Assembly: GCA_945883815.1 (NCBI GenBank)
Contig: CAMCYJ010000005.1
Location: 1-64,000, forward strand
Direction: 5' to 3'
DNA: 64,000 nt
Source: Akkermansia muciniphila
Lineage (GTDB): Bacteria > Verrucomicrobiota > Verrucomicrobiia > Limisphaerales > UBA9464
In this document: in pieces, positions 42,733 through 51,260 of the stretch
Numbering within the stretch: position 1 is the stretch's first letter
Layout of the letters: the number at the start of each line of letters is the position of its first letter
The notes under the pieces: generated by a model
The model's database searches: none
What the model saw: the letters and a program-made list of their open reading frames with translations, nothing else
Told to the model about the DNA's origin: nothing
Translations under genes and position numbers: made by a program

Positions 42733-44190
42733 ATGCAAGACTACGCCAACTTCATCGGAGGCAATTGGGTGCCAGCCGCATCCGGGGCCACCTTCACGAC
42801 CACCAATCCTGCGGACACCCGGGAGACGGTGGCTCGCTACCCGTTGTCGGACGCGCCGGAGTTTGCGGCGGCCACAGCTGCGGCTCAGAAGGCGTTCCCG
42901 GCCTGGGCGGCGCTGACACCGGTGGCGCGTGGGCGTTTCCTCAGCAAGGCCTCGCAAATTCTCGAAGCCCGCAAGGCCGATCTGGCCCTGCTGCTTGTCC
43001 GTGAAGAGGGTAAGACACTGACCGAGGCCACCGGCGAGGTTCAGAGGGCGGCCGATATCTTCAGGTTTTTTGGCGGCCTGAGTTACACGGTCGGTGGACA
43101 GACCATTCCCCACGATTTGCCGGGCAATCTGTTGTTCACTCGTCGTGAACCGCTGGGTGTGGTGTCGCTCATTACTCCGTGGAATTTCCCCATCGCCATC
43201 CCAGCATGGAAACTTGTTCCAGCCTTGCTGTGCGGGAACGCGGTCGTTCTCAAGCCCGCCTCGCAGGCTCCGGCCATGGCGCTTGAGCTGGCCAAGGTTC
43301 TGGCCGAGGCCGGTTTGCCGGCGGGCGTGCTCAACGTGGTCACGGGTTCCGGTCGGGCGTTCGGTTCCGAGATCGCCTCCAACTCCGCCATTCAGGCGTT
43401 GAGTTTTACGGGCTCCCACGGGGTGGGCACGGCGTTGTATCAAACGCTCGCGCCGCGGCGGATTCGCGTTCAGTTAGAAATGGGTTCCAAGAATCCCACG
43501 ATCGTGCTGGCCGATGCCGACCTGGATTTGGCGGCGCGTTTGGTGGCTATCGCCGGATTCGGCCTCACGGGTCAGGCGTGCACGGCGACGAGCCGCGTGA
43601 TCGTGGAGCGATCGGTGCTCGAAGCCTTCACCGAGAAGTTGGTGGCGCTGGCCAAGACCTGGAAGGTCGGGCCCGGTGCGCAGCCCGGTGTCCAAATGGG
43701 CCCGGCGGTGAACGCCGACGAATTTGAGGGCAACTTTGCGGCCATCCAGCAGGCGATCGGTGAGGGTGCTGAATTGGTTTGGGGTGGAGCCCGGCTTAAC
43801 GAGGGCGAACTGGCCCATGGCTATTTCATGCAGCCGGCTATTCTCGGCAAGGTGACCCCGTCGATGCGCATCGCGCAGGAAGAAGTCTTCGGCCCCGTGG
43901 TGGTCATCCTGGCGGTCGATTCGTTTGATGAGGCTATCGCCGTGGCCAATGGCGTGAAGTACGGCCTCAGCGCCAGCCTGGTGACGCGCGATTTCAAGAA
44001 GGCCATGCAGTACGCCGAGCGCATTGAGTGCGGTGTGGTGAAGGTGAATCAAATCAGCACGGGCCTCGCCCTTCAGGCTCCTTTCGGCGGCGTGAAGGAC
44101 AGCTCCACCGATTCGTACAGAGAGCAGGGCACCGCGGCGTTGGATTTCTACAGCCGCACCAAGACCGTGTACTTCGACTATTCGGCCTAA
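42733..44190 (+). CDS. NAD(P)-dependent aldehyde dehydrogenase
   Basis: Start at ATG 42733 (485 residues), in agreement with family N-termini (DYANFIGGNWV); a TTG at 42688 would add 15 residues. Catalytic motifs are complete: TPWNFPIAIPAWKLVPAL, the Glu in VQLEMGSKNP (about 250) and the nucleophilic Cys at residue 283 (GQACTATSR), and EEVFGPVV. The protein resembles succinate-semialdehyde or 2-oxoglutarate-semialdehyde dehydrogenases; the substrate is not decided by sequence inspection. The stop TAA at 44188-44190 doubles as the flank of a palindromic element. Confidence 0.92.
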   Translation: MQDYANFIGGNWVPAASGATFTTTNPADTRETVARYPLSDAPEFAAATAAAQKAFPAWAALTPVARGRFLSKASQILEARKADLALLLVREEGKTLTEATGEVQRAADIFRFFGGLSYTVGGQTIPHDLPGNLLFTRREPLGVVSLITPWNFPIAIPAWKLVPALLCGNAVVLKPASQAPAMALELAKVLAEAGLPAGVLNVVTGSGRAFGSEIASNSAIQALSFTGSHGVGTALYQTLAPRRIRVQLEMGSKNPTIVLADADLDLAARLVAIAGFGLTGQACTATSRVIVERSVLEAFTEKLVALAKTWKVGPGAQPGVQMGPAVNADEFEGNFAAIQQAIGEGAELVWGGARLNEGELAHGYFMQPAILGKVTPSMRIAQEEVFGPVVVILAVDSFDEAIAVANGVKYGLSASLVTRDFKKAMQYAERIECGVVKVNQISTGLALQAPFGGVKDSSTDSYREQGTAALDFYSRTKTVYFDYSA

Positions 44191-44355
44191 GCCGGAACGA
44201 TGCAGTTGGATCGGTCGTGCTGGCTGCGTCTTCTTCCGCAAGAGCTTCGTTGCTCGCTCGTTACGGGCCTTCAATCGGCCCGCGCCTCGCTCTCGCCTCG
44301 TCTTGCGAAAGAATCCACCACGCCATCCCGTTCCTCCCAACTGCATCGTTCCGGC
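44191..44355. mobile_element. MITE-like 165-bp palindromic element
   Basis: Perfect 19-bp terminal inverted repeats (44191-44209 and 44337-44355), a second nested pair 44231-44243/44301-44313 (12 of 13 bases) and an inner pair CGGGCC/GGCCCG (44264-44269/44277-44282) are all centred on 44273, so the whole element can fold into a single long hairpin. TAA directly abuts both ends (44188-44190 and 44356-44358), as a 3-bp target duplication would. There is no coding potential. It separates the aldehyde dehydrogenase and beta-propeller genes and could also act as a terminator. Confidence 0.8.
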
Positions 44356-44423
44356 TAAGCGGTGCCCGGTCTTCGGGCCGGGTTTCTATCGCGCCTTGTG
44401 CCGGGGCGGGCTACACCTCGTGC

Positions 44424-45830
44424 ATGATGCTCAGAGGTCCGTGGCTAGAGGCTTGCCGACAGTGGTGGTCTTGGATCTTGGTGGTGGCCGCTGGCACCGG
44501 CATCCTGTGCGCCGAAGCGGCCACGAATCCACCGGCGCCACGGACCGCCCCGGCGGCGTTGCAGGGCACCGCGCTGGCCTGGCCCCAATGGCGGGGCCCC
44601 TTGGCCACGGGTGTATCGCCGACGGCTCAGCCGCCCTTGCAGTGGAGTGAAACCAAACACGTCCGCTGGAAGCTTCCGCTACCGGGCAAGGGGCATTCCT
44701 CTCCCATCATCCTTGGGGATCGCGTGGTGGTCATGACGGCGCTTCCCGTGGGTGAGCCCCAGAAGCCCGTCTTCGATCAGGCCCCGGGTGTGCACGACAG
44801 CGTGCCGGTCACGCATCGCCATGAATACGCGGTGTTGTCGGTGTCCCGGAAGGACGGCCGGCTGGCCTGGAAGGCGATCGTCCGCGAGGACTGGCCCCAT
44901 GAAGGCGGGCACACCACCGGCAGTCCGGAGTCCCATTCCCCGGTGACCGACGGACAAGCCATTTACGCCTTGTTCGGCTCCCGCGGGCTTTACTGCCTGG
45001 AGGCCGACGGCCGGATTCGCTGGCGCAAGGACCTCGGCCGCATGAACACCTTGCATGCCCATGGCGAGGGGAGTTCTCCGGTGGTCCACGGCGGTCTGCT
45101 GGTGGTGAACTGGGACCACGAGGGCGGATCGTTCATCCAGGCCTTCGATGCCCGCACCGGCGACTCCCGATGGAAGACCGACCGCGACGAGAAGACCTCG
45201 TGGTCCACGCCCATCGTCGTTGACGTCGATGGCAAACCCCAGGTGATCGTGAGCGCCACCCGGCGGGTGCGTGGGTACGACCTGGCCACCGGCGCCTTGA
45301 TTTGGGAATGCGCGGGTCTCACCGACAACGTGGTGGCCTCGCCCGTCGTTCACCGCGGAACCCTCATCGCCGGCAACAGTTACTACACCCAGGCCATGCT
45401 GGCGCTGCGGTTGTCGGGGGCACGTGGTGATGTGAGTGGCTCCGATCACGTGCTGTGGCGGATGAATCGACTGACCCCTTACGTGGCATCGCCGTTGTTG
45501 TACGACGACACGCTGTACCACCTGAGGCACAACCAGAACGTGCTCGTGCGTCTGGATCCGACCACCGGGAAACTTCGGGGAGAACTGCTGCGGTTGGAAG
45601 GCATCCGCGACTTCATCTTTGCCTCGCCGGTTGGAGCCGCGGGCCGGATTTACATCACCGGTCGCGATGGAACGACCGTGGTCCTCCAGCATCCGTCCGG
45701 GAATGAGGCGTTCGAAAACGCGGTGTTGGCGGTGAATCGGCTGGAAGATTCCTTCAGTGCCTCACCGGCGATGGTGGACCGGGAATTTTATCTGCGCGGC
45801 GAGCGCTTCCTGTATTGCCTGGCCGAGTGA
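44424..45830 (+). CDS. Exported PQQ-like beta-propeller protein
   Basis: ATG 44424 gives a 468-residue protein with a signal peptide (to about residue 32, ending CAEA). The body is a beta-propeller with PQQ-type blades (WPQWRGPLATG; ARTGDSRWKT; DLATGALIWE; DPTTGKLRGEL), a fold common in exported PVC proteins. No PQQ-dependent dehydrogenase active site is evident, so this is likely a binding or structural protein. The longer open reading frame back to 44028 would cross the palindrome and is rejected. Confidence 0.88.
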   Translation: MMLRGPWLEACRQWWSWILVVAAGTGILCAEAATNPPAPRTAPAALQGTALAWPQWRGPLATGVSPTAQPPLQWSETKHVRWKLPLPGKGHSSPIILGDRVVVMTALPVGEPQKPVFDQAPGVHDSVPVTHRHEYAVLSVSRKDGRLAWKAIVREDWPHEGGHTTGSPESHSPVTDGQAIYALFGSRGLYCLEADGRIRWRKDLGRMNTLHAHGEGSSPVVHGGLLVVNWDHEGGSFIQAFDARTGDSRWKTDRDEKTSWSTPIVVDVDGKPQVIVSATRRVRGYDLATGALIWECAGLTDNVVASPVVHRGTLIAGNSYYTQAMLALRLSGARGDVSGSDHVLWRMNRLTPYVASPLLYDDTLYHLRHNQNVLVRLDPTTGKLRGELLRLEGIRDFIFASPVGAAGRIYITGRDGTTVVLQHPSGNEAFENAVLAVNRLEDSFSASPAMVDREFYLRGERFLYCLAE

Positions 45831-45891
45831 CTCTCACCGCCGCTGCTGCGGGATCGGAGCCGGAGGCCGGTGGGCGCTCCCTCAGGCCGAC

Positions 45892-46698
45892 TTATTGGGT
45901 CGCCATGGCCTTGGGGCGGGAAGTGACTTCGCGGAAGCGGGACTCGTACTCCGGATGATTCGTGCCCATGAGCCGGTCCCACACATTGAGATAAAGGCTG
46001 TAGTTCCCCCGCATTTTCTCGTGATGCATGATGTGGTTGGTGGGGGTGTTGATGAACTTGCCCAACCACGAGTCCATGAGCCATCTCGGATAGAACTCAT
46101 AGCCGGTGTGGCCCATCACGTTGAAGAAAATCTGCCACAGCATGAAGATCGTGAAGGCCACCGGGTGGATGGGCATCACCAGCAAGGCCAGCGGAAAGAT
46201 GCCTGCCTCCACCACCGCCTCGGCCGGCGCGAAGGAGTAGGACGCCCAAGGCGAGGGGTTATTGGAAAGATGGTGCACCCGATGGAACACCGCGAAGAGC
46301 CGCGGATGGTGCATCAGGCGATGGGTCCAATAGAACCAGGTGTCATGCAGTACGATCGTGCAGGCGATGCTGCCCCAGAACCAAACGATGCTGTGTTGGT
46401 TGATCTGCCAATACATCTGAGTCCAACCGGACCGCGCCGCCAGGATGGTGCTGGCTCCGACCAATCCGAAGATGAACAAAGTCTGCAAGGAATAGCGGAT
46501 TTCCCGTCGGATATCGGCAGACCCTGGAAAATGGGGGATGATCTTGCGATGGGCCCAGCGTTGCCGGAACCACCAATAGCCCAGAACCCAACCAATCCCC
46601 GCGAAGATCAAGTAGCGCAGCGTGGCATCGACCGTGGTGGCTCCAGCGATCTTGAAGAAGCTCCAGGGCGAATTGAGGACGCGCTCCAGCGGTGTCAT
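45892..46698 (-). CDS. Sterol desaturase/fatty acid hydroxylase family membrane enzyme
   Basis: A 268-residue integral membrane protein with several hydrophobic helices and the histidine clusters that bind the di-iron centre: HDTWFYWTHRLMHH (about 117-130), HRVHH (about 138-142), and HIMHHEKMRGNYSLY (about 222-236). Expected reaction is O2-dependent hydroxylation or desaturation of a lipid; no substrate can be named. Its start region abuts the RhuM-HsdR remnant, and a longer reading into that remnant is a shadow. Confidence 0.9.
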   Translation of the reverse strand: MTPLERVLNSPWSFFKIAGATTVDATLRYLIFAGIGWVLGYWWFRQRWAHRKIIPHFPGSADIRREIRYSLQTLFIFGLVGASTILAARSGWTQMYWQINQHSIVWFWGSIACTIVLHDTWFYWTHRLMHHPRLFAVFHRVHHLSNNPSPWASYSFAPAEAVVEAGIFPLALLVMPIHPVAFTIFMLWQIFFNVMGHTGYEFYPRWLMDSWLGKFINTPTNHIMHHEKMRGNYSLYLNVWDRLMGTNHPEYESRFREVTSRPKAMATQ

Positions 46699-46828
46699 TG
46701 CGGTTGATTCTGATCCGTCGCCGATTCGGTGGCGATGCCTTCTTGAACACCGGAGATATTCGACTCGGACGTTCCCTTCGATTCGCGTTCAAGCGATGGG
46801 GGCACACTGGCTTTGAGTCCGTGCAACT

Positions 46829-47431
46829 GGCAAGCCGGATGAGTTTTTGGATAATCTCTCGAGTGCTGATGGCGGGGTTGTCTTGCGCCTTCAGTGACTG
46901 CTTCAGCATTTCGCCAAAAATATGGCTCCGCGGTAGCTTGCGTTTGGATCGCTCCTTCAGCTTCTTTCCGAGGATCGAGCCATCGTTCTTCAGCCGCTCG
47001 TCATCCATCGCGAAGTCCTTGATCGTGAAGGACTCGATGATGCCGGTGGCCCACTTTCGGAATTGGACCGCCCGCCCGGAGTTGACCTTGTAGCCAATAG
47101 CGATGATGGCCGAGAGGTTGTAGTGGCCCATGGCGTATGACTTTCCGTCGGCGGCAGTTATCCGAAAAAATTGGAGTACTGACCCCTCCTCCAACTCGTG
47201 GTCAGCAAAGATCGTCTTGAGGTGGTAGCTGATTGTGCGGACGTCTGCGTCATACAGCGACCCCATCATCTTCTGGCTCAGCCAGACATTCTCCTACGCG
47301 TACACCGCCTCTTCGCCTCCCTGATCGGACGCAGCGATAAACGTCGGGTATTCCGCTGCCGAGGACCCGACCAAGGATGCAGCCGACTTCCGCTTGCCAC
47401 GCCCACCGGGCTGGGGAGAGGAATCGCTCAT
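46829..47431 (-). pseudogene. Fused remnant of RhuM and HsdR C-terminus
   Basis: From ATG 47431 (preceded by AAGGAG) the frame begins a RhuM family protein but reaches an in-frame TAG directly before ENVWLSQKMMGSLYD. Past this stop it continues with clear RhuM sequence (TISYHLKTIFADHELEEGSV, FRITAADGKSY, NSGRAVQFRKWATGIIES, MDDERLKN) to about 46984. It then passes without frame change to RSKRKLPRSHIFGEMLKQSL and NPAISTREIIQKLIRLA, which match the C-terminal region of type I restriction subunit HsdR (DUF3387-like), ending at about 46829. RhuM genes commonly sit inside hsd operons, so this is the scar of a deleted type I restriction-modification locus. Confidence 0.75.
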
Positions 47432-47610
47432 GGGCTCCTTGTGGATTGGAATCGGCGTTGGTGAAGAGTACCGAAGGGGAGTGCCAAAATAGGGAGTCCT
47501 TTCTGCGTGTCCATCGCGACAACCCTGGGCGGTACTAATGATGCTTGAGTTGGAACCTGAAATGCCGCGACAACGGGATGATGAGCCTTTGTGAGCCTAA
47601 TGGGCCCAAC

Positions 47611-47642
47611 AAAAAGGCCGCTTTCCCGAAGGAAAACGGCCT
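47611..47642 (-). terminator. Intrinsic terminator of tRNA-fMet
   Basis: On the minus strand, just beyond the tRNA 3' end, a stem of AGGCCG/CGGCCT extended by TTTCC/GGAAA around CGAA (47615-47642) is followed by a U-rich run (47611-47614). The hairpin has one internal mismatch. It lies 7 bases after the tRNA. Confidence 0.85.
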
Positions 47643-47648
47643 GAAAGT

Positions 47649-47725
<77 letters not shown>

Positions 47726-47852
47726 ATCCCGAGGCGCAAAGTGATACGGGATGGTGGCCTCTACGGCAAGGATGAAGGCGAAGTTTCTTCAGACAAGTCG
47801 CTGACGGGAGGCCCGGCAGGAGGCTCCCAAAGACCCCCTCGTCCGACGGCGA

Positions 47853-48593
47853 TCAGCGTCCCAGCGCCTTGCGCTCGACCTTCTTGATTTCTTTGGCCAA
47901 TGCCGGGCCCCGGGTCTGTGGGGGCAGGAAAGAGTTGGCCCACTCCGGTGCGGGAGCCCCGGTTGGCAGGGCTTTTACCAGGCTTTGAAGGGCCTCCGAG
48001 GTGTATCCGCTTCGTGCTGCCAACTGAGTGCCTCCGCGCAGCGCTTCGAGGGCTTGGGCATCGCTGAGGGAGGTCGCAACGGGCGTTGAACCGATGCTGG
48101 CGGAATCTACCCCCGGTTGGACCAGTGAGGTGCGGATCAGTTCGGTGGCCACCAAGGTCGCGGCCAGTTGATTGAAGGCCGTCAATTGCTGGTTCCGGTC
48201 ATCGGTCACCGGCTTGCGGGCCTTTTTGGTCGGAATTTCCGCGGGATCGGGCAATGCCGCCACGCCGCTCGGTGCATCGGCACAACGCCGCAGGAATTCG
48301 GCGAGATAACCCGGGCAGTCGGAGTCACGGCCAATCGCCACGGCCAGGCGGGACCACAGTTCCAGCGTGTCTTCGCTCACCAACACTTGCCTGCCCTGGG
48401 TTACCAGCCTCGGGCTCTTGCCCTCTGTCACCCGCACCGGCGGTTGGGCCAAGGCAGATCGTTGCGGCGGGGTTAGTGTTTCGATCAGGCGGCCATTGAT
48501 CTTTTCGACCCACGGACGCCATTCAGACTCGGCGTTGAGTCGGAAAAAACCGACGTGGATGAACACGAGGGACAGGCAAAAGAGGCGGGTCAT
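47853..48593 (-). CDS. Exported protein of unknown function
   Basis: A 246-residue protein with a signal peptide (about 1-21, ending LNA) and an otherwise helical, Ala/Leu/Ser-rich body. It contains a region (VLVSEDTLELWSRLAVAIG) typical of globular helical domains, and a Gln/Thr-rich centre. No family is recognised. Its start is 27 bases downstream of the metF stop on the same strand, so it may be co-transcribed with metF. Confidence 0.65.
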   Translation of the reverse strand: MTRLFCLSLVFIHVGFFRLNAESEWRPWVEKINGRLIETLTPPQRSALAQPPVRVTEGKSPRLVTQGRQVLVSEDTLELWSRLAVAIGRDSDCPGYLAEFLRRCADAPSGVAALPDPAEIPTKKARKPVTDDRNQQLTAFNQLAATLVATELIRTSLVQPGVDSASIGSTPVATSLSDAQALEALRGGTQLAARSGYTSEALQSLVKALPTGAPAPEWANSFLPPQTRGPALAKEIKKVERKALGR

Positions 48594-48620
48594 GGTGTCC
48601 GGTCAGTCGTACTTTATTAC

Positions 48621-49514
48621 TCAGGCATGACCCAGATTCTTGAGGATTTCAACCGTCGAGTGAGCCTTGTTCAGGGTGTAGAAGTGCACGCCCGGAGCGC
48701 CCCCTCGGATGAGTTCCTCGATTTGCCGTGTGCAGTATTCGATGCCGAAGGCGGTCACGGCGGCATCGTCGTCGCCCAAGGTTTCGAGGCGGGAGAGGAA
48801 GTGCTCGGGTAACCGCGCGCCGCAGAGGGCCGTGAACTTCTTGGTTTGGTTGCGTGCCACGACGGGCAGGAGGCCCGGAATCAACGGCACATCCACGCCG
48901 AGCGTCTTGGTCAGATGGTCCCGCATGGCGAAGTAGTCGTCGTTGTTGAAGAACAACTGGGTTACCACAAAATCCGCTCCTTGGCGGATCTTGTCGGCCA
49001 AATGCTGCCAGTCTTGATGTTTGCCGGCAGTTTGGGCGATGTGACCCTCTGGGAAACCGGCCGTGCCAATGCTGACGCCCCCCAATTCCCGCAGGTAAGC
49101 CACGAGTTCCGAGGAATACTGGAAGCCGCCCTCGGTTTGAACCCAGTCACCGGAACCGCCCGGCGGATCTCCCCGCAGTGCCAGAATATTCCGCACACCG
49201 CGCGCCTTGGCTTCGTCGATGACCGATCCCAGTTCGGCCTTGCTGGCGTTGACGCAGGTCAGGTGCATCACCGTCGTCAATCCGAAGTCGCGCTGGATGC
49301 GCTCGACGATCCCCAGGGTCTTCTCTCGGGTAGACCCGCCGGCACCGTAGGTTACCGAACAGTAGTCCGGCCGAGCGGCCAAAAGGGCAGGGAGGGTCTT
49401 CTCGAACAACGCCCGCTCGCCCTCCTCGGTCTTGGGCGGAAAGAACTCAATGGAATACGAGGGACGGCCCCGTCCGGCGTTCTCCCGGTGGATCTCGTGG
49501 ATGTGGCGGATCAT
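48621..49514 (-). CDS. metF: 5,10-methylenetetrahydrofolate reductase
   Basis: From ATG 49514 the protein has 297 residues, the normal length of bacterial MetF; the in-frame extension to 49550 is atypical. Family segments are YSIEFFPPKTEEGE (about 19-32), CSVTYGAGGSTRE, MHLTCVNASKAEL, ILALRGDPPG, KIRQGADFVVTQLFF and HFYTLNKAHSTVEIL. With FAD it reduces 5,10-methylene-THF to 5-methyl-THF for methionine synthesis in the cytoplasm. A possible user, a short MetE-like protein, occurs at 62425. Confidence 0.97.
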   Translation of the reverse strand: MIRHIHEIHRENAGRGRPSYSIEFFPPKTEEGERALFEKTLPALLAARPDYCSVTYGAGGSTREKTLGIVERIQRDFGLTTVMHLTCVNASKAELGSVIDEAKARGVRNILALRGDPPGGSGDWVQTEGGFQYSSELVAYLRELGGVSIGTAGFPEGHIAQTAGKHQDWQHLADKIRQGADFVVTQLFFNNDDYFAMRDHLTKTLGVDVPLIPGLLPVVARNQTKKFTALCGARLPEHFLSRLETLGDDDAAVTAFGIEYCTRQIEELIRGGAPGVHFYTLNKAHSTVEILKNLGHA

Positions 49515-49907
49515 TGGTGCTGATGGTGTAAGGTTCGGGTGGGGAATCAAGAGTCAAATCAATCAATCCTGATGGGATGATATGTATACCGGGAGTCTCC
49601 AGTGACAGGTCCGCAGTTTGAGCAAGGCCTGAATCGCCGCTTTTGGGCTCGGCAGCGACGTTGCCCCTAGTGCGGACCCAGGTCTTTTGGCCGGCGATCA
49701 CAACAGAGTGACAGGTTCAAAGTGTTGGTTCGGCCCCGATCACAACAGAGTGACAGGTTCAAAGTGTTGGTTCGGCCCAGCCTTGGCGCGGGGTGGTGAT
49801 AAAGTGACAGGTTCAAAGTACTCGAAGGTCTGGCCGGGTAGACTTTAGACCTGCCTTGGGCCCGGAGCGGGCTTGAGTTGGCGGGCACAACCGTCTAGCA
49901 CAGGCGC
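49515..49907. other. Intergenic region with short tandem repeats
   Basis: 393 bases without a credible gene between divergent metF and the oxidoreductase. It contains the 42-bp repeat array described separately, which accounts for the only repetitive frame seen on the minus strand. Promoters for both neighbours should be here; no clear box pair was recognised. Confidence 0.55.
49696..49820. repeat. 42-bp tandem repeat with third partial copy
   Basis: Two nearly identical 42-base units at 49696-49737 and 49738-49779 share the core GTGACAGGTTCAAAGTG; the core AGTGACAGGTTCAAAGT occurs a third time at about 49803-49819. A fourth, weaker relative, AGTGACAGGT, lies near 49600-49609. The spacing is not constant beyond two units and there are no spacers, so it is not a CRISPR array. 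It might bind a protein or belong to a genomic REP-like family. Confidence 0.85.
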
Positions 49908-51260
49908 ATGACACGCCGAAAGTTTCTCCAGACGGGCGCAGCCTTGTCGGCCGCGACCTTTGTTCCCACGACCTTCGCCCAAGACAAAGCCCTGCGGGTG
50001 GGCTTGATTGGCACGGGTTGGTACGGCAAGTGCGATTTGCTGCGACTCATTCAGGTCGCCCCGGTGGACGTGGTTTCGCTGTGCGATGTCGATCGCCGTA
50101 TGCTGGCCGATGCAGCCGCCCTAGTGGCCCAGCGGCAGAAGTCCGGCAAGCAGCCTCGGACTTACGGCGATTACCGGAAGATGCTGGCCGAGAAAGATTT
50201 GGATGTGGTGCTCATCGGCACTCCGGATCACTGGCACGCTCTGCCGATGATCGAGGCCTGCAAGGCGGGCGCGGACATCTACGTGCAGAAGCCGACGGGC
50301 GTGGATATCGTCGAGAGCCAAGCCATGGTGGCGGCCGCCCGGAAATACGGCCGGACGGTGCAAGTGGGCACCCAGCGTCGCAGCACCCCCCACCTCATCG
50401 AGGCCCGCGATCGTATTTTGCGCGAGGGCAAGTTGGGCAACATCGCCCACGTGGAAATTTGCTGCTACTGGCACATGCGAGCCCGCGACACGCTGGCCAG
50501 CGCCCCGGATACCACCGCTCCGGAATGGCTGGATTATGAGATGTGGACCGGCCCGGCCCCGATGCGGCCTTACAACAAAATGGTGCATCCCCGCGGATGG
50601 CGGGCGTTCATGGAGTACGGCAATGGCATCGTGGGTGACATGTGCATCCACATGCTGGACATGGTGCGCTGGATGATGGACCTCGGATGGCCCGTCTCGG
50701 TGAGCTCCAACGGCGGCATCCTGGTGGACAAGGCCAGCCGGGCCAACATCACTGATACTCAGACCGCGACCTTCGACTTCGGCAACCTCCAGGTGCGCTG
50801 GACGCACCGGACCTGGGGTGAGGGCGGCGATCCCAAATACCCCTGGAGTGCGACCTTCTACGGCGACAAGGGAACCCTCAAAGCCAGCGTCTTCGGCTAC
50901 GACTACACGCCGCAGGGCCCCGGCAATCCGGTGCACAAAGATGTCGGCATGGAGCTCGATCAGTATCCGGAGGACCAGACCGAGAAGGACTTGGAGAAGC
51001 ACTGCGCTCCGGCCATCCGCGGTCACATGCGCAATTTGTTGGATTGCCGTAAGAGCGGAGCTAAGCCGGTGGCCGACATCGAGCAGGGGCACATTTCGAC
51101 GGCCTCTTGCGTCCTGGCCAATTTGTCGCAGCAACTCGGCGGACGCACCCTGCGTTGGGATCCCAAGACCCACACCATTGTTGGGGACACCGAGGCCAAT
51201 GGACTCCTGGCGCGCCCCTACCGCAGTCCGTGGGTGCATCCGACCGCCGCATCGGTGTGA
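49908..51260 (+). CDS. Tat-exported Gfo/Idh/MocA-family oxidoreductase
   Basis: The 450-residue protein has a twin-arginine signal (TRRKFLQTGAAL, then Ala-rich to about residue 24), the Rossmann motif VGLIGTGWYGKCDLL (about 31-45) and the EKP-equivalent YVQKPTGVD in the active-site region. The C-terminal domain fits the family (GNGIVGDMCIHMLDMVRW). Tat-exported oxidoreductases of this type are widespread in PVC bacteria and act on sugars or inositols, often with tightly bound NAD(P). It stands alone and its substrate is not clear. Confidence 0.9.
   Translation: MTRRKFLQTGAALSAATFVPTTFAQDKALRVGLIGTGWYGKCDLLRLIQVAPVDVVSLCDVDRRMLADAAALVAQRQKSGKQPRTYGDYRKMLAEKDLDVVLIGTPDHWHALPMIEACKAGADIYVQKPTGVDIVESQAMVAAARKYGRTVQVGTQRRSTPHLIEARDRILREGKLGNIAHVEICCYWHMRARDTLASAPDTTAPEWLDYEMWTGPAPMRPYNKMVHPRGWRAFMEYGNGIVGDMCIHMLDMVRWMMDLGWPVSVSSNGGILVDKASRANITDTQTATFDFGNLQVRWTHRTWGEGGDPKYPWSATFYGDKGTLKASVFGYDYTPQGPGNPVHKDVGMELDQYPEDQTEKDLEKHCAPAIRGHMRNLLDCRKSGAKPVADIEQGHISTASCVLANLSQQLGGRTLRWDPKTHTIVGDTEANGLLARPYRSPWVHPTAASV

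What the first reader, a model, noticed from the sequence alone, without database searches (positions are those of the whole stretch)
46829..47431. Fossil of a deleted type I restriction-modification locus, fused from RhuM and HsdR
One minus-strand frame joins the N-terminal half of RhuM, interrupted by a TAG directly before its conserved ENVWLSQ segment, to a stretch that resembles the C-terminal part of HsdR (RSKRKLPRSHIFGEM, NPAISTREIIQKLIRLA). RhuM genes are often embedded in hsd operons, so a single internal deletion between rhuM and hsdR would produce exactly this. The scar lies 218 bases from the 3' end of initiator tRNA, a type of position where islands frequently insert. I know of no functional RhuM-HsdR fusion; the stop codon argues for decay.
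Basis: partly seen in the sequence, partly recalled or inferred. Interest (0 to 1): 0.62.

Follow-up and report, generated by a model that had tools for sequence, protein, structure and literature searches.

The report
Decayed remnant of restriction-modification genes
Between an initiator tRNA gene and a sterol-desaturase-like gene of an uncultured verrucomicrobial bacterium lies a 600-base scar made of the front of a rhuM gene joined to a small inner piece of hsdR, with a stop codon; it is the dead remnant of a phage-defence locus at a spot where close relatives carry other gene debris or other restriction genes.

Summary
One minus-strand frame (47431-46829) holds RhuM codons 1-157 (PF13310 7.5e-23; 83% identical to intact RhuM from codon 47 on), with TAG at 47296-47294, followed directly by 44 codons of HsdR (PF11867 1.5e-5; 50-58% identical to many HsdR proteins at one fixed place). 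DNA alignments abut almost base to base: RhuM ends at 46962, HsdR spans 46960-46828, and the flank shared with four congeners resumes at 46825-46827. On the left, shared flank ends at 47584. The HsdR piece is internal (residues ~902-945 of ~1053), so besides the rhuM-hsdR deletion (about 3.6-3.8 kb on intact operons) a second breakpoint removed the hsdR end. Intact relatives have rhuM upstream of hsdR on the same strand. Both pieces break conserved positions more than intact copies do. In four congeners the same gap holds only the C-terminal remnant of an ABC-transporter ATPase. In another congener hsdM-dinD-like-hsdS follows the same tRNA, and a desaturase on a separate contig is preceded by a broken hsdR. 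The verdict is a decayed type I restriction-modification locus: ordinary gene decay, at a spot that seems to host such loci repeatedly. Insertion into the tRNA end itself is not supported.

The parts
47649..47725 (-). initiator tRNA gene (anticodon CAT), intact
   Evidence: ARAGORN; identical in congeners
47584..47648 (-). conserved flank after the tRNA, with its terminator hairpin; left edge of the block unique to this genome is near 47583
   Evidence: blastn to G018 and G003 ends at 47584, to G001 at 47599, to G010 at 47601
47432..47583 (-). unattributed 152 bases upstream of rhuM, absent from congeners at this site; AAGGAG just before the ATG
   Evidence: no match outside the tRNA flank in the loci held; sequence
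46961..47431 (-). 5' part of rhuM, codons 1-157 of about 355, with a TAG at 47296-47294
   Evidence: PF13310, PDC-S05; 79% DNA identity to G031:C6 over 46962-47410; protein alignments
46828..46960 (-). internal piece of hsdR, about 44 codons, equal to residues ~902-945 of a 1053-residue HsdR
   Evidence: PF11867; DNA match 46828-46960 to G025 and G030
46699..46827 (-). flank shared with congeners; contains the tail of the reading frame of an ABC-transporter ATPase C-terminal remnant (its TGA overlaps the next ATG)
   Evidence: blastn edge 46825-46827 in G018, G003:C118, G010, G001; frames
   Evidence: homologues in 13 of 19 genomes of the genus

Best explanation
It is a non-functional remnant of a type I restriction-modification locus. 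Shown: the pieces, their order, their edges, the stop codon, the excess of changes at conserved positions, and the absence of the block from the same gap in four congeners. Inferred: a locus with rhuM directly upstream of hsdR once occupied the gap between tRNA-fMet and the desaturase gene. hsdR probably lost constraint first, as expected when a restriction subunit must go before its methylase. A deletion of about 3.6-3.8 kb then joined rhuM codon 157 to hsdR codon ~902, a second deletion removed the hsdR end and most of an ABC-ATPase remnant next to it, and the rest of the operon was lost. A nonsense mutation ended rhuM at codon 46. Nothing is made from it that could work as RhuM or HsdR.
For: RhuM and HsdR identity. 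Abutting alignments at 46962/46960 and 46828/46827. Intact order hsdM-hsdS-GmrSD/Schlafen-like gene-rhuM-hsdR on one strand in L034, and hsdM, hsdS, rhuM, hsdR in L052. hsdM or hsdR homologues within 10 kb of 35 of the 80 nearest rhuM genes, hsdR downstream on the same strand in 20. Decay: the HsdR piece breaks 8 of 18 conserved columns, more than any of 52 intact segments (maximum 5); the RhuM part breaks 10 of 87, a level otherwise reached only by an outlier (L109) and by two copies that themselves carry stops (L011, L012), other copies 7 or fewer. The same gap in G018, G003:C118, G010 and G001 holds only an AAA_assoc_C remnant. An ABC-transporter ATPase frame stands before the desaturase in G015. 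In congener G014, hsdM (internally deleted), a Bro-N/DinD-like gene and hsdS follow tRNA-fMet, and a broken hsdR stands before a desaturase.
Against: No genome held shows the intact ancestor at this exact gap with this rhuM and this hsdR, so one common operon is inferred from other loci. The HsdR piece is more diverged from its relatives (58% identity at best) than the RhuM piece (83%), so the two could come from different systems. Substitutions in the RhuM part are still mostly at third codon positions (8, 10, 41), so it was constrained until recently. The genome is a draft assembly of 189 contigs and the junction is not verified by reads.
Confidence: 0.86

Rival explanations
1. rhuM and hsdR fragments come from two different systems that occupied the gap at different times and were joined by unrelated deletions, not from one operon.
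For: Different divergence of the two pieces. Congeners show remnants of a different hsdR before the desaturase with another junction (46764), so more than one system has visited such sites.
Against: Order and strand are exactly those of intact operons, where hsdR commonly follows rhuM by under 2 kb. The abutment needs only one deletion. The greater divergence of hsdR is explained by its earlier decay.
Confidence: 0.2
2. A shortened RhuM remains in use, by restart at the ATG at 47269 or by read-through of the TAG, with the HsdR piece as a tail.
For: The RhuM part still shows third-position bias, the frame is open for 308 codons from 47269, and a ribosome-site-like AAGGAG precedes the first ATG.
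Against: Over half of RhuM is missing and the restart drops the conserved start of the protein. Conserved residues are broken. The open frame runs on out of register into the desaturase gene. No other genome held has such a fusion. Stops in the G014 and G048 copies are at other positions, so there is no shared recoding.
Confidence: 0.04
3. The junction is an assembly chimera in a draft genome.
For: 189 contigs, 91% complete, 3% contamination; some congeneric contigs end near this gap.
Against: Both flanks keep the order seen in congeners on single contigs (tRNA on one side, desaturase on the other). The stop codon and point decay are independent signs of a pseudogene.
Confidence: 0.06

Closest known systems
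RhuM genes inside type I hsd operons (PF13310; PADLOC candidate PDC-S05)
   Same: Same gene, upstream of hsdR on the same strand, as in L034 and L052
   Different: Here only codons 1-157 remain, with a stop at codon 46, and hsdM/hsdS are gone
HsdR of the HindI-like group (PF11867 T1RH-like_C)
   Same: 44 codons match residues ~902-945 with 50-58% identity
   Different: No nuclease, helicase or C-terminal end remains; 8 of 18 conserved positions are changed
Ordinary bacterial pseudogenes left by partial deletion of restriction-modification loci
   Same: Fragment, in-frame deletion joint, nonsense mutation, found in one genome only
   Different: Nothing in kind; the repeated presence of hsd debris at comparable sites in congeners is the only unusual point

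Membership tests
RhuM family (PF13310) | match to the RhuM domain profile | tested here: met
   81.5 bits against a cut-off of 33.7, but only profile positions 1-70 of 252
RhuM family (PF13310) | full-length uninterrupted reading frame | tested here: not met
   TAG at codon 46; frame leaves RhuM after codon 157 of about 355
HsdR / type I restriction subunit R | match to the C-terminal T1RH-like profile | tested here: inconclusive
   25.0 bits, cut-off 26.8; identity as an HsdR fragment secured
HsdR / type I restriction subunit R | HSDR_N nuclease and SWI2/SNF2 helicase domains | tested here: not met
   absent from the scar; PF04313 in this genome only at C14 and C30
working type I restriction-modification locus | hsdM, hsdS and hsdR together | tested here: not met
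   none intact between 46699 and 47648
genomic island inserted at a tRNA 3' end | duplicated tRNA 3' end (att repeat) | tested here: not met
   no second copy of the tRNA 3' end in the window with up to 3 mismatches
genomic island inserted at a tRNA 3' end | integrase gene next to the tRNA | not tested
   no profile search for an integrase was made; the gap is too small to hold one

The most novel reading that the evidence does not exclude
The gap between tRNA-fMet and this desaturase gene is a recurrent landing and decay spot for type I restriction-modification loci in this genus: this genome, G014 and probably the lineage behind G003:C25 carry debris of different hsd loci there, with different junctions, while sisters keep an ABC-transporter remnant.
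Probability: 0.5. Interest if true: 0.35.

Novelty: new member of a known kind. Interest (0 to 1): 0.2.

Why it matters
It is one more well-resolved example of how a defence locus dies. Both deletion edges can be placed to a few bases by comparison with sisters, and the greater decay of hsdR than of rhuM fits loss of restriction first. The comparison also points to a spot in this genus that seems to exchange restriction genes repeatedly. It does not reveal a new system.

Tried and rejected
NCBIfam gave no match. The HsdR piece against plasmids gave one weak HsdR hit, against solved structures only chance armadillo-repeat hits. A tRNA-end duplication was sought and not found, and no telling direct repeat flanks the block. 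Sense recoding of TAG was considered because the G014 and G048 copies also carry stops; these lie at other codons and come with a frameshift or an insertion, so rejected. A different filler in congeners was first read as an empty site; frames showed it is the C-terminal remnant of an ABC-transporter ATPase. Microhomology at the rhuM-hsdR joint was looked for; the known relatives are too distant to decide. Papers naming RhuM with type I restriction were few; they were listed but not read.

Full report
What is there. The minus-strand frame 47431-46829 reads 201 codons with one stop, TAG at 47296-47294, directly before ENVWLSQ. tRNA-Met with anticodon CAT lies at 47649-47725. From ENVWLSQ on, the frame matches Pfam RhuM (7.5e-23) and then T1RH-like_C, the C-terminal region of HindI-type HsdR (8.7e-5; 1.5e-5 for the last 48 codons alone, 25.0 bits against a cut-off of 26.8). 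PADLOC candidate-defence models PDC-S05 match the RhuM part at up to 8.9e-48.

The HsdR call is not chance. In whole-genome searches the last 49 residues match HsdR frames of many genomes at the same place, about 50% identical, E to 3.5e-8 for one genome. At DNA level 133 bases match two genomes of the same family at 69%. Against intact operons the piece aligns to residues 897-945 of a 1053-residue HsdR in L034 and to the same place in L052. About 108 residues of HsdR should follow and are missing, so it is an internal piece.

Edges. RhuM DNA homology to G031 runs 47410-46962 and HsdR homology to G025/G030 runs 46960-46828. The right flank shared with congeners G018, G003:C118, G010 and G001 begins at 46825-46827, and the left flank ends at 47584 in G018 and G003. 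So the block unique to this genome is about 757 bases: 152 unattributed, 471 of rhuM, 133 of hsdR. Measured on L034 and L052, the deletion between rhuM codon 157 and hsdR codon ~902 is about 3.6 and 3.8 kb (arithmetic).

Intact relatives. L034 holds hsdM, hsdS, a GmrSD-N/Schlafen-type gene, rhuM and hsdR on one strand. Of the 80 nearest rhuM loci at least 35 have hsdM or hsdR homologues within the 10 kb held on each side (a lower bound, few queries); hsdR lies downstream on the same strand in 20 of 27 with hsdR. No relative has both pieces in one frame.

Decay. At columns conserved in 85% of relatives, the HsdR piece differs in 8 of 18, more than any of 52 intact segments (maximum 5). The RhuM part differs in 10 of 87, including the stop. 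Among 74 relatives only an outlier (L109, 19) and two copies that carry stops themselves (L011, 17; L012, 10) reach this; others have 7 or fewer. RhuM substitutions against the nearest relative fall 8, 10, 41 on codon positions 1, 2, 3, so its decay is recent. The stronger drift of hsdR suggests that it lost constraint first; that order is inference, in line with the general rule that restriction must be lost before its methylase.

The site in relatives. In G018, G003:C118, G010 and G001 the gap holds the C-terminal AAA_assoc_C part of an ABC-transporter ATPase (PF09821 1.3e-15 for G018); in G015 an ABC-transporter ATPase frame lies before the desaturase. The tail of that frame is still present in this genome between 46827 and the desaturase start. 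G011 has about 3 kb of other genes there. In G014 tRNA-fMet is followed by hsdM with an internal deletion, a Bro-N/DinD-like gene and hsdS up to the contig end, and on another contig a desaturase is preceded by an hsdR fragment and an IS66 transposase. The same hsdR-desaturase junction occurs in G003:C25. That the two G014 contigs join is inferred.

What does not hold. The tRNA end is not duplicated, and the block begins after the tRNA terminator, so tRNA-directed integration is not supported. A single deletion does not explain the missing end of hsdR. This genome does keep another hsdM, a rhuM-like gene (41% identical) and an HSDR_N frame of 1078 residues on contig C14.

Verdict. The possible hot spot is the part worth a further look.

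Noticed in passing
window 43000-51000 against G018:C193 and G003:C118: The desaturase side is 95-96% identical to G018/G003, while 47865-49585 on the other side of the tRNA is only about 80% identical, as if a recombination edge lay at the tRNA-scar region.
   Followed up: partly
L156, L157, L159, L161 (congeners), between tRNA-fMet and desaturase: An open frame of about 110 codons with the C-terminal AAA_assoc_C domain of an ABC-transporter ATPase is kept in four congeners without the ATPase part; it may be a remnant or a stand-alone domain.
   Followed up: partly
L164:5005-7810 (G014:C21): hsdM with an internal in-frame deletion, a Bro-N/DinD-like gene and hsdS directly downstream of tRNA-fMet in a congener.
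   Followed up: partly
L163:2970-3100 and L169:2290-2420: Two congeneric contigs share the same junction of an hsdR fragment to the desaturase upstream region; G003 carries two versions of this region, possibly from mixed strains.
   Followed up: partly
L149:949-2023 and L150:150-1000: Two further broken rhuM genes in the same family, with stops at other codons than here and a frameshift or insertion.
   Followed up: partly
L171:4343-8099 and L229 (G000:C14): A second type I locus of this genome: hsdM, a rhuM-like gene, an hsdS-like frame, a phosphoesterase-like gene and an HSDR_N frame of 1078 residues.
   Followed up: no
window 49696-49766: A 29-base segment present in at least two near copies between the folate-reductase-like gene and the next gene; both match a single place in G018, G003 and G011.
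   Followed up: no
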